A stretch of 64,000 bases of DNA from positions 1-64,000 of the forward strand of contig JAKVKY010000002.1 of NCBI GenBank assembly GCA_022484685.1. Reading direction: 5' to 3'. Under the pieces are notes generated by a model. That model did not search any database, was not told where the DNA came from, and saw only the letters and a program-made list of their open reading frames with translations. The DNA comes from Acidaminococcaceae bacterium (lineage in GTDB: Bacteria > Bacillota > Negativicutes > Acidaminococcales > Acidaminococcaceae). The stretch's first letter is position 1; the number at the start of each line of letters is the position of its first letter. This document shows positions 18,940 through 32,595 of the stretch, piece by piece. The translations under genes were made by a program, and so were the position numbers.

Positions 18940-20184
18940 GTGGCGGCTACGGAACGCTGGGTCCTGCATGTGGATATGGATGCGTTTTTTGCTTCGGTGG
19001 AACAGCTGGATCATCCGGAGTACCGGGGGCAGCCGGTCATCGTGGGCGGAATGTCGGCCCGCAGCGTGGTGTCCACCGCTTCCTACGAAGCCCGGGCTTT
19101 CGGCGTCCATTCCGCCATGCCTATCTTTGAGGCGAAACGGCTCTGTCCCCACGGCATCTATGTGCAGAACCGGGGCGCCCGCTATGCGGAAGTCTCGGAG
19201 CAGATCATGGAGATTTTTCGCGAGACTTCGCCTCTGGTGGAGCAGCTTTCCATTGATGAGGCGTTTTTAGACCTGACCGGCATGGAAGCTTTGGGCGGCA
19301 CCGAATTTTTGGCGCGCCAGGTACAGGCACGTATCCAGAAAGATTTGCATCTGACCGCTTCCGTAGGCCTGGCGCCTAATAAGTTTTTAGCCAAGCTGGC
19401 CAGCGATTTACGCAAGCCCCGCGGTTTTGTGGTCATCCGGAAGGAAGAAGCCGCGGCGCTGCTGGCGCCTATGTCCGTACGTAAAATTTTCGGCATCGGC
19501 CGCCAGGCGGAAGCCCAGCTGGCTCAGTTCGGCATCACCACCATCGGGCAGCTGGCCCGCGCGGACCGGCGGGTACTGGTAAAAGTTTTCGGCATCAATG
19601 CGGATACGGTGCGGAACCTGGCCCTGGGTCTGGATAACCGGCCGGTGGTACCGGACAGCGAAGAAAAATCCCTGGGCAAGGAAACCACCTTTGATGTAGA
19701 TTATCACGACTACCAGATCTTGAAAGCCGTGCTGCTGGACCTGGTGGGACAGGTAGGCTGGCGGCTTAGACGTAAAAAATTGAGCGGGCGCACCGTGACG
19801 GTGAAAGTGAAGTACGCGGATTTTAAAACCATCACCCGCAGCCGTTCCGTGGAAGGGGTGTTGTGCTGGGACGAGGAAATCTTTACCCTGGCGGCAGATA
19901 TTTTGCGCCAGATTGACCTGCGCAAAGGCGTGCGTCTGCTGGGAGTTTATATCAGCAACCTGCTGCCGGGGAGCAGCGCCGGGGACCTGGGTTTTCAGGA
20001 AACGGTGCGGCTGCAGCAGCGTAACCAGGCGGTGGATGCCCTGAAGGCCAAGTTTGGGGAGCAGATCATCCACCGGGGGCTGACCGGCGGGGAAAATTTG
20101 GCCGCGCCAATCGGTGGTCCGGCTGGTAAAGGGCCGGACCGGGAGGGCGGCTTAAAAATCGTCCCAGCGGGACAAAAAAAGTAA
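18940..20184 (+). CDS. dinB: DNA polymerase IV (Y-family translesion polymerase)
   Basis: A 414-residue Y-family polymerase that copies past damaged bases. The catalytic DxD lies in HVDMDAFFASVEQ at the N-terminus and the second acidic pair in LSIDEAFLDLT near residue 105; the fingers motif YEARAFGV, the HhH APNKFLAKLASD and the little-finger domain (about 240-350) follow. The start is GTG 18940 with AAGG ten bases upstream; no ATG lies before the catalytic motif. The last 30 residues are Gly/Pro-rich. I see no terminal beta-clamp motif with certainty. The usual length is 350-420. Confidence 0.93.
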   Translation: MAATERWVLHVDMDAFFASVEQLDHPEYRGQPVIVGGMSARSVVSTASYEARAFGVHSAMPIFEAKRLCPHGIYVQNRGARYAEVSEQIMEIFRETSPLVEQLSIDEAFLDLTGMEALGGTEFLARQVQARIQKDLHLTASVGLAPNKFLAKLASDLRKPRGFVVIRKEEAAALLAPMSVRKIFGIGRQAEAQLAQFGITTIGQLARADRRVLVKVFGINADTVRNLALGLDNRPVVPDSEEKSLGKETTFDVDYHDYQILKAVLLDLVGQVGWRLRRKKLSGRTVTVKVKYADFKTITRSRSVEGVLCWDEEIFTLAADILRQIDLRKGVRLLGVYISNLLPGSSAGDLGFQETVRLQQRNQAVDALKAKFGEQIIHRGLTGGENLAAPIGGPAGKGPDREGGLKIVPAGQKK

Positions 20185-20276: not shown

Positions 20277-20305
20277 ATCACGAGTGGGACAAAATAAATC
20301 CCTAC

Positions 20306-20334
20306 TGGACAAAAAGAAACCAGAGTGCTATACT
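20306..20334 (+). promoter_or_regulatory. Promoter of a micro-ORF transcription unit
   Basis: TGGACA (20306-20311), 17 bp, TATACT (20329-20334) preceded by GTGC. It starts a unit of about 290 nt that ends at the hairpin at 20593-20623. A near copy of the -35 region (GGGACAAAATA) lies at 20286. Confidence 0.6.
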
Positions 20335-20390
20335 AAGGGCGTAGGGAAAAAGACCCGGACGGAAAATTAACAGAAAGGCAGGGGAGCAAG

Positions 20391-20450
20391 ATGGATTTCG
20401 AAAAGATCGTGAACATGATTTGTGCTTTTGGATTCTTTATGGAAGGCTGA
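20391..20450 (+). CDS. Micro-ORF 1, 19 residues
   Basis: MDFEKIVNMICAFGFFMEG followed by TGA. AGGGGAG lies eight bases before the ATG, a strong ribosome site. The middle (IVNMICAFGFF) is hydrophobic and resembles the N-terminal half of the small holin-like/type I toxin peptides of Bacillota, but it stops where those would continue through the membrane. I do not recognise a function; a leader peptide, a signalling peptide or a decayed toxin are all possible. It is the first of three tiny ORFs between a good promoter and a terminator. Confidence 0.4.
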   Translation: MDFEKIVNMICAFGFFMEG

Positions 20451-20497
20451 GCAGTTTAAGGAAAGTCATTAGTTAACGGTAAGGTTAGGTGAGAGTT

Positions 20498-20554
20498 ATG
20501 TTGAACAGATTTGTGAAAGCTTTATACAGCTTGGAAGTTTATTTTATCGATTGA
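20498..20554 (+). CDS. Micro-ORF 2, 18 residues
   Basis: MLNRFVKALYSLEVYFID followed by TGA. A purine-rich GGTGAGAG stretch lies just before the ATG. The peptide is amphipathic with a basic N-terminal part and an acidic end. No family is recognised. It follows micro-ORF 1 by 47 bp on the same predicted transcript. Confidence 0.35.
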   Translation: MLNRFVKALYSLEVYFID

Positions 20555-20568
20555 TAAAAGAGGACAAC

Positions 20569-20607
20569 ATGAAAAATAAATTTAGCAAAGCGAAGGCGCT
20601 TCGGTAG
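20569..20607 (+). CDS. Micro-ORF 3, 12 residues, runs into the terminator stem
   Basis: MKNKFSKAKALR followed by TAG, with AAGAGGA six bases before the ATG. It is strongly basic. Its last codons form the left arm of the terminator at 20593-20623, so ribosome position here could open or close that hairpin. It may be chance; the good ribosome site is the only support. Confidence 0.3.
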   Translation: MKNKFSKAKALR

Positions 20608-20630
20608 CAAACCGCAGCGCCTTTAATTTT
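20593..20630 (+). terminator. Terminator of the micro-ORF unit
   Basis: AAGGCGCT-t-CGGT / ACCG-c-AGCGCCTT with a four-base loop, followed by TAATTTTAT. Confidence 0.75.
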
Positions 20631-20702
20631 ATGCCGGTGAGAGGAAGAGGAGAACGTCGTTTTTAGACTTTTTTGGCCGGGAAGCCGCTCTGGTTCTGGG
20701 GA

Positions 20703-20806
20703 GGAGAAGGTGAGAAGGTAATTGGGGTAAAAGTCCCTAGAAAAAAATTTAAAGTATCGTAATAAAAAACTAAGGACTTTTCCCGCTTTTGCTTCTCACC
20801 TTCTCC
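20703..20806. repeat. 37-bp imperfect inverted repeat around an AT-rich core
   Basis: Left arm 20703-20740 and right arm 20770-20806. The outer 15 bp (GGAGAAGGTGAGAAG) are perfect, the inner part AAAAGTCCcTAG matches with one change, and a 29-bp A/T-rich loop separates them. No ORF lies inside. It could be a small non-autonomous palindromic element or a structured RNA. Confidence 0.8.
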
Positions 20807-20855
20807 CAAGCAGTCAGGGAGCGGACTAGCGACCTTTAAACCCCAAAATTACAGC

Positions 20856-21076: not shown

Positions 21077-21099
21077 ACGTTTAAAGTTCATAAGAACCA

Positions 21100-21370
21100 C
21101 AAAACCTACGAAGCGGAGATCAAGTCAAAAGAAGCGCTGACAGAGAGTCCGGGGTGCTGGGAGCCGGATAGAGATGCTGTTTGATAAATGGACCGCTGAG
21201 GGTGCGCTGAAAGCAGCTTGCTGCAAGTACCGCGCAACGTAACACCGGCGTTAAGGGTGAGGGGTGTGTTGGCACCCTGGATGAGCGCACGGAGTTTCCG
21301 TGCAGCAAGGTGGTACCACAGGTAAAAAGTTAACCTGTCCTTGTAATTGGCAAGGGCGGGCTTTTTTATT
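21100..21370 (+). ncRNA. Tryptophan T-box leader
   Basis: A tRNA-sensing leader RNA. Stem I shows the GA motif (AGAGAGTCC at 21142-21150) and the distal loop GCTGGGAG. The specifier region reads AAATGGACC, with codon TGG (Trp) at 21189-21191 followed by the usual purine. The T-box core AAGGTGGTACCACAGG is at 21307-21322. The terminator GTCCTTG...CAAGGGCGGGC with TTTTTT lies at 21336-21367 and competes with the antiterminator. Uncharged tRNA-Trp should promote readthrough into trpC. The match of specifier and downstream genes makes the call firm. Confidence 0.93.
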
Positions 21371-32392: not shown

Positions 32393-32432
32393 GAAGTCAA
32401 AGCTTATATGATACAAAGATAATATAAACTAA

Positions 32433-32595
32433 GCCGCTCTGTCCTTTTGCCTGAGAGATGAGGATTGCTCCATGCCCCTTCGGCGCCCGCTAACGAGACT
32501 CTCCAGAGTTGTGTCCCTGTACAGTCCTATCTGCGAGGCAGATACCTGAGAGTTTAACTCCTTCGGTAGACTTGGGTCTTCTCCCGTACAGTTCA
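32433..32595 (-). ncRNA. Tandem glycine riboswitch
   Basis: Two aptamers read on the minus strand. The first carries GGGAGAAGACCC, ACCGAAGGAG and CTCTCAGGTA. The second carries ACTCTGGAGAG, GCCGAAGGGGC and CTCTCAGGCAAAAGGACAGAG, all conserved glycine-aptamer elements. Glycine binding should change the fold of the terminator at 32358-32392. Whether glycine turns the gene on or off cannot be decided by reading. Confidence 0.93.

What the first reader, a model, noticed from the sequence alone, without database searches (positions are those of the whole stretch)
20306..20630. Compact transcription unit of three micro-ORFs (19, 18 and 12 residues)
A good promoter (TGGACA-17-TATACT), three tiny ORFs each with a ribosome site, and a strong terminator sit in about 320 bp of otherwise gene-free DNA after dinB. 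The first peptide (IVNMICAFGFF core) resembles the start of holin-like type I toxins but stops early; the third overlaps the terminator stem, so its translation could control that hairpin. This could be a peptide system, a dual-function small RNA or a decayed toxin locus. It is the best candidate here for something undescribed.
Basis: partly seen in the sequence, partly recalled or inferred. Interest (0 to 1): 0.62.

Follow-up and report, generated by a model that had tools for sequence, protein, structure and literature searches.

The report
Glycolysis-controlled operon of conserved micropeptides
A 300-base stretch between two ordinary genes of a gut bacterium encodes two tiny related peptides of 18-19 amino acids that are conserved across the Acidaminococcaceae and whose promoter carries the binding site of CggR, the repressor that senses sugar breakdown, so they look like an undescribed small-peptide branch of glycolysis control.

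Summary
In detail: promoter, three micro-ORFs with ribosome sites and a terminator are at the stated places. The interpretation needs correcting. ORF1 and ORF2 are paralogues of one undescribed peptide family, 18-19 aa and alignable without internal gaps, found in 19 of 59 Acidaminococcaceae genomes and nowhere else searched. Codon changes are overwhelmingly synonymous (pN/pS mostly 0-0.15), so the peptides are translated and selected; they are not truncated holin-like toxins. ORF3 has a counterpart ending at the terminator in 17 of 19 loci but is poorly conserved in sequence. The "-35 box" TGGACA is the third half-site of an operator, GGGAC-N7-GTCC-N4-(T)GGAC. This operator also lies in front of cggR-gapA, an AfuA-like ABC transporter, TRAP transporters and an alcohol dehydrogenase, and it matches the experimental Bacillus subtilis CggR operator (23 bits, 0 of 20,000 shuffles). 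CggR is found in 18 of 19 peptide-positive genomes. Most likely this is a CggR-repressed, fructose-bisphosphate-induced micropeptide operon whose products tune carbon uptake or central metabolism, by analogy with SR1P and VcdP. Conservation and CggR-type control are well supported by sequence; the peptides' target is inference. There is no expression data.

The parts
20286..20310 (+). CggR-type operator GGGACAAAATAAATCCCTACTGGAC (GGGAC-N7-nTCC-N4-TGGAC); third half-site overlaps the -35 box; a weak fourth half-site (AACC) follows in the spacer
   Evidence: Model R1 hit 20286-20315, E 8.3e-6 (the site is itself in the model); same motif in front of cggR and of AfuA-like ABC genes; B. subtilis CggR operator scores 23 bits with the matrix built from these sites, 0 of 20,000 shuffles
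20306..20334 (+). sigma-70 promoter TGGACA-17-TATACT with extended -10 (TGC)
   Evidence: geometry conserved in 17 relatives
20149..20184 (+). probable auxiliary CggR site (TCGTCCCAGCGGGACAAAAAAAG) inside the 3' end of dinB, about 130 bp upstream of the main operator
   Evidence: R1 hit E 0.048; 22 bits, 0 of 100 shuffles; similar auxiliary sites 127-139 bp upstream in G013 and G068
20391..20450 (+). ORF1, class A micropeptide MDFEKIVNMICAFGFFMEG (19 aa), a divergent member
   Evidence: Profile E 1.4e-7 (the sequence is itself in the profile); alignment with relatives without internal gaps
20498..20554 (+). ORF2, class B micropeptide MLNRFVKALYSLEVYFID (18 aa)
   Evidence: Profile E 1.9e-6 (the sequence is itself in the profile); class B pairs in relatives have pN/pS 0-0.15
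20569..20607 (+). ORF3 MKNKFSKAKALR (12 aa), runs into the terminator stem; counterparts of 5-16 aa ending at the terminator in 17 of 19 loci
20592..20630 (+). intrinsic terminator (hairpin then T-rich tail)

Best explanation
The locus is a stand-alone operon of two paralogous micropeptides (class A, 19 aa, then class B, 18 aa) plus a very short last ORF that ends at the terminator. Steps supported by sequence: the A/B peptides are translated and under selection as peptides, and their promoter carries a CggR operator that covers the -35 box. Inferred from B. subtilis CggR: when glycolytic flux is low, a CggR tetramer occludes the promoter; when fructose-1,6-bisphosphate (and DHAP) rises, CggR is released and the peptides are made together with gapA, an AfuA-like ABC transporter and other carbon genes. 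Inferred with less certainty: the peptides act inside the cell as small-protein regulators that bind a carbon-uptake or central-metabolism protein, as SR1P (GapA) and VcdP (citrate synthase) do; negative feedback on sugar-phosphate uptake or adjustment of a glycolytic enzyme is the most likely role. The last ORF probably matters for its translation up to the terminator rather than for its product. My estimates: conserved translated peptides 0.95, CggR control 0.85, intracellular metabolic regulator 0.6.
For: Nineteen of 59 Acidaminococcaceae genomes carry the peptide, in several different gene neighbourhoods but with the same promoter-peptide-terminator order. Codon test: for example 4-10 synonymous against 0-3 nonsynonymous changes among tandem B copies. 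One member (G002) was found by peptide profile alone, E 2.5e-6, and turned out to have the operator upstream. The operator was then found in front of cggR itself in about a dozen genomes, including the window's own, and in front of ABC, TRAP/GntR, kduI and alcohol dehydrogenase genes. The B. subtilis CggR operator taken from the literature scores 23 bits against our matrix. The genome's own regulator matches B. subtilis CggR 8r3g at E 2e-77 over nearly its full length. CggR is present in 18 of 19 peptide-positive and 23 of 40 peptide-negative genomes (Fisher P 0.003; within one genus, 3 of 4 CggR-positive against 0 of 10 CggR-negative genomes have the peptide, P 0.011).
Against: No expression, ribosome-profiling or binding data exist here. 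The Fisher tests ignore shared ancestry. G052 has the peptide but no CggR hit (89% complete). Many CggR-positive genomes (genera g2, g13) lack the peptide, so it is optional. In G002 the operator lies about 225 bp upstream of the peptide rather than on its -35. The intracellular target is a guess by analogy; a secreted or membrane-active peptide is not excluded. Class B is moderately amphipathic, class A not significantly.
Confidence: 0.6

Rival explanations
1. The peptides are secreted or membrane-active (leaderless bacteriocin-like or surfactant-like short helices), with CggR simply timing production to sugar availability.
For: Short, hydrophobic (mean Eisenberg 0.64-0.78) peptides in tandem copies; class B is moderately amphipathic (144 of 5,000 column permutations as good).
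Against: No export or immunity gene recognised nearby; flanking genes differ between genomes; class A amphipathicity is not significant; net charge ranges from -3 to +3; sequences are conserved rather than diversifying.
Confidence: 0.13
2. The RNA is the main product: a CggR-controlled small regulatory RNA, with the peptides as a second function (true dual-function sRNA).
For: About 290-nt transcript with strong terminator, folding somewhat better than shuffles (z -1.95); SR1, VcdRP and SgrS are of this kind.
Against: The conserved parts are the operator, the promoter and the codons; untranslated parts differ in length and sequence between genera; no Rfam match.
Confidence: 0.12
3. The peptides are intercellular signals read by an intracellular receptor (ComS/SHP-like).
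For: Similar size and lack of a signal peptide; dyad operator at the promoter.
Against: The operator belongs to CggR, a metabolite-sensing repressor, and also occurs in genomes without the peptide; no receptor gene recognised next to the locus.
Confidence: 0.05
4. Type I toxin (holin-like) or its decayed remnant.
For: Superficial likeness of the ORF1 core to starts of holin-like toxins (from memory only).
Against: All members end at 18-19 aa, too short to span a membrane with a tail; purifying selection; no minus-strand promoter-like site inside the unit.
Confidence: 0.03
5. Leader-peptide attenuator: translation of the micro-ORFs controls the terminator for a downstream gene.
For: Third ORF ends at or in the terminator stem in most loci; conserved C-terminal FYxxH and stop.
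Against: Downstream genes differ between genomes and some are convergent; no anti-terminator was seen.
Confidence: 0.05

Closest known systems
SR1 / SR1P of Bacillus subtilis (39-aa peptide binding GapA; PMC8152036)
   Same: Small protein from a short stand-alone RNA, controlled by a carbon regulator and tied to the GapA node.
   Different: SR1P is 39 aa, restricted to Bacillales, and repressed under glycolytic conditions by CcpN/CcpA; here 18-19 aa peptides in two paralogous classes, under a CggR operator, expected to be induced by glycolysis.
VcdRP / VcdP of Vibrio cholerae (29 aa; binds citrate synthase; PMC8672173)
   Same: Carbon-regulator-controlled short RNA with a small protein acting on central metabolism.
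   Different: CRP control, one peptide, plus a known base-pairing segment; no base-pairing segment identified here.
CggR regulon (cggR-gapA operon; PMC11229326; PMC8579813)
   Same: Same operator and an orthologous CggR; the window locus is a predicted member of the regulon.
   Different: Targets described in the passages read are glycolytic operons; a micropeptide gene, AfuA-like ABC, TRAP and alcohol dehydrogenase targets were not mentioned there. In B. subtilis the operator lies downstream of the start site (+32 to +77), here on the -35.
SgrS / SgrT (sugar-phosphate stress; PMC4021124, listed)
   Same: Sugar-phosphate-linked RNA with a small protein limiting sugar uptake: a model for how this could work.
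   Different: Different regulator, peptide and phylum; no evidence yet of transporter inhibition here.

Membership tests
CggR regulon member | CggR operator (GGGAC/GTCC half-sites as in B. subtilis OLR) at the promoter | tested here: met
CggR regulon member | CggR encoded in the same genome | tested here: met
   Own genome C28:18131-19168, with the operator just upstream of cggR-gapA; 18 of 19 peptide-positive genomes
CggR regulon member | CggR binding and FBP-dependent release in the tube or cell | not testable with these tools
   needs EMSA or a reporter
Translated small-protein family | Purifying selection on codons across species | tested here: met
Translated small-protein family | Detected peptide or ribosome footprint | not testable with these tools
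   no expression data
SR1P family | 39-aa sequence conserved in Bacillales | tested here: not met
   All members are 18-19 aa against the 39 aa reported for SR1P
Holin-like type I toxin | Membrane-spanning peptide of about 30 aa or more | tested here: not met
   18-19 aa in all 19 genomes
Holin-like type I toxin | Cis-antisense RNA promoter | tested here: inconclusive
   Consensus scan shows no minus-strand promoter-like site within the unit
Dual-function sRNA | Conserved base-pairing segment or known RNA family | tested here: inconclusive
   No Rfam match; fold z -1.95; targets not searched
Peptide pheromone (RRNPP type) | Dedicated peptide-binding regulator next to or controlling the gene | tested here: not met
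   The predicted regulator is CggR, a sugar-phosphate-sensing SorC-family repressor

The most novel reading that the evidence does not exclude
A previously unrecognised family of two-paralogue micropeptides (18-19 aa) acts as the dedicated small-protein output of glycolytic-flux sensing by CggR in gut Negativicutes, feeding back on sugar-phosphate uptake or a glycolytic enzyme; its last micro-ORF couples translation to termination.
Probability: 0.35. Interest if true: 0.72.

Novelty: new variant of a known kind. Interest (0 to 1): 0.6.

Why it matters
Genes of 18-19 codons escape routine annotation. This one is identified by selection, recurrence and a shared operator, and it comes with a predicted inducer (sugar, FBP) and a predicted repressor, so its function can be tested directly. 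It would extend CggR from glycolytic operons to small-protein control and add a very short peptide family to carbon regulators such as SR1P and VcdP, in abundant gut succinate and amino-acid fermenters.

Tried and rejected
Holin-like toxin remnant: rejected by constant length and purifying selection. Peptide pheromone or LytTR-type direct-repeat promoter: pursued because of the 20-bp GGACAAAA repeats, dropped when the motif proved to be the CggR operator, present also in peptide-negative genomes. LexA/SOS link through dinB: dinB adjoins the locus in only two of the genomes examined. Phage origin: no promoter-pattern match in 2.9 million viral contigs. Contaminants and chance hits: G255 (same as G071), G097, G102 (RNase P-like), G149 (T-box-like), G222 and G266 partial peptide hits. 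G063 peptide hit spurious. Fisher counts were slightly wrong and were redone. Amphipathic-helix test weak.

Full report
Observation. It lies between dinB, which has its own terminator, and the T-box leader of the trpC region.

Conservation. A DNA search of relatives matched only the promoter region, but reading those loci showed the same order of elements. A promoter pattern found one site in each of 12 of 59 family genomes with no hit for the reversed control, all followed by 18-19 aa ORFs. A looser pattern over 380 class genomes added more, all in the same family apart from a contaminant, chance hits and one second site in the host genome itself. A scan of about 85,000 species genomes gave 18 contigs; all but one repeat loci already found, and the titles point to Acidaminococcaceae (Phascolarctobacterium and unnamed relatives) with a few bins that bear other names. 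No viral contig matched. The peptides align without internal gaps. A profile search found one further genome that the promoter pattern had missed (G002, E 2.5e-6) and no convincing member outside the family. In total 19 of 59 family genomes have the peptide.

Two classes. Class A (19 aa, M[TSD]xxK[FI]...) precedes class B (18 aa, typically MLE..VKALY) wherever both occur (window, G017, G057); other genomes have only A, only B, or two B copies (G058-G060). Window ORF1 is a divergent A and ORF2 a B.

Selection. In close pairs, changes are mostly synonymous: tandem B copies 4-10 against 0-3, L029/L037 5.5 against 1.5, L022/L033 10 against 2; ratios are mostly 0-0.15, rising to 0.2-0.4 in the more distant pairs. 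This is direct evidence that the peptides are translated and that their sequence matters.

ORF3. A short ORF ending at the terminator is found in 17 of 19 loci, often with a good ribosome site, sometimes starting 1-3 bases after the preceding stop (for a few loci the automatic terminator boundary cut the ORF off, and it is seen). Combined over five lineages, the chance of a ribosome-site ORF reaching the stem is about 7e-4. Its sequence is loosely conserved (for example MKxxYK, MKxDFK), so its product is less certain than A and B.

The regulator. The promoters share GGGAC-N7-GTCC-N4-(T)GGAC, the last part being the -35 box. The same motif is upstream of an ABC substrate-binding gene in the 18 peptide-positive genomes read (G071 was not read out; G020 is the weakest, with 3 mismatches) and in some peptide-negative ones; it is absent from others. 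A sequence model of the motif then hit directly upstream of cggR-gapA in the host genome and about a dozen others. These cggR sites were not used to build the model. The B. subtilis CggR operator in PMC11229326 is TGACGGGACGTTTTTTGTCATAGCGGGACATATAATGTCCAGCAA; it scores 23 bits with our matrix, 0 of 20,000 shuffles. A CggR motif GGGAC-(27)-GTCCC is reported for Caldicellulosiruptor (PMC8579813). The host's own protein is a near full-length match to CggR 8r3g, E 2e-77, and its neighbour is a GAPDH. CggR occurs in 18 of 19 peptide-positive and 23 of 40 peptide-negative genomes; in genus g14, four genomes have CggR and three of these have the peptide, while none of the ten without CggR has it. 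Shared ancestry is not corrected for.

The regulon. Besides cggR-gapA, operators precede an ABC substrate-binding protein related to AfuA (4r72), which transports hexose phosphates in other bacteria (PMC4546632), TRAP transporters, a GntR regulator, kduI and an alcohol dehydrogenase. NCBIfam's nearest models for the ABC protein are 2-aminoethylphosphonate binders, far below their cut-offs, so its substrate is open. The set points to carbon supply.

Mechanism. In B. subtilis, CggR represses as a tetramer and is released by FBP and DHAP (PMC11229326). In this locus the operator sits on the -35 box, so simple occlusion is expected. In the window, G013 and G068 an extra operator-like site lies 127-139 bp upstream, which might support looping. 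What the peptides do is inferred by analogy with SR1P (PMC8152036) and VcdP (PMC8672173): binding a metabolic enzyme or a transporter.

Limits. No transcript, footprint, binding or phenotype data; the host is an incomplete draft (81.6%); the peptide target is unknown; the literature search covers open papers only and found no mention of this family.

Noticed in passing
window 20149-20184: Auxiliary CggR-like site inside the 3' end of dinB, about 130 bp upstream of the main operator; similar sites 127-139 bp upstream in G013 and G068 suggest possible DNA looping.
   Followed up: partly
G000:C6:1317-1364 (L042): A perfect CggR-type operator on the promoter of an iron-type alcohol dehydrogenase in the same genome.
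   Followed up: partly
G010, G022, G017, G058-G060, G013, G068 and others (L069, L070, L113-L116, L126, L129): An AfuA-like ABC substrate-binding gene with a CggR-type operator across much of the Acidaminococcaceae: a candidate sugar-phosphate transporter under FBP control.
   Followed up: partly
L120, L130, L125, L191, L067: CggR-type operators in front of a GntR regulator plus TRAP transporter, other TRAP dctP genes and kduI.
   Followed up: partly
window 21099-21345: T-box leader before trpC, 82 bits, just under Rfam's gathering score of 93.
   Followed up: no
window 20690-20810: Long imperfect inverted repeat downstream of the operon (arms near GGAGAAGGTGAGAAG / CTTCTCACCTTCTCC); Rfam miRNA hits there are spurious; possibly a small repeat element.
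   Followed up: no
window 32429-32516, minus strand: Glycine riboswitch aptamer (Rfam, 63.7 bits).
   Followed up: no
G255 / L060 (binned as Selenomonas ruminantium RUG14411): Carries a stretch identical to the G071 locus; probably a contaminating contig in that bin.
   Followed up: partly
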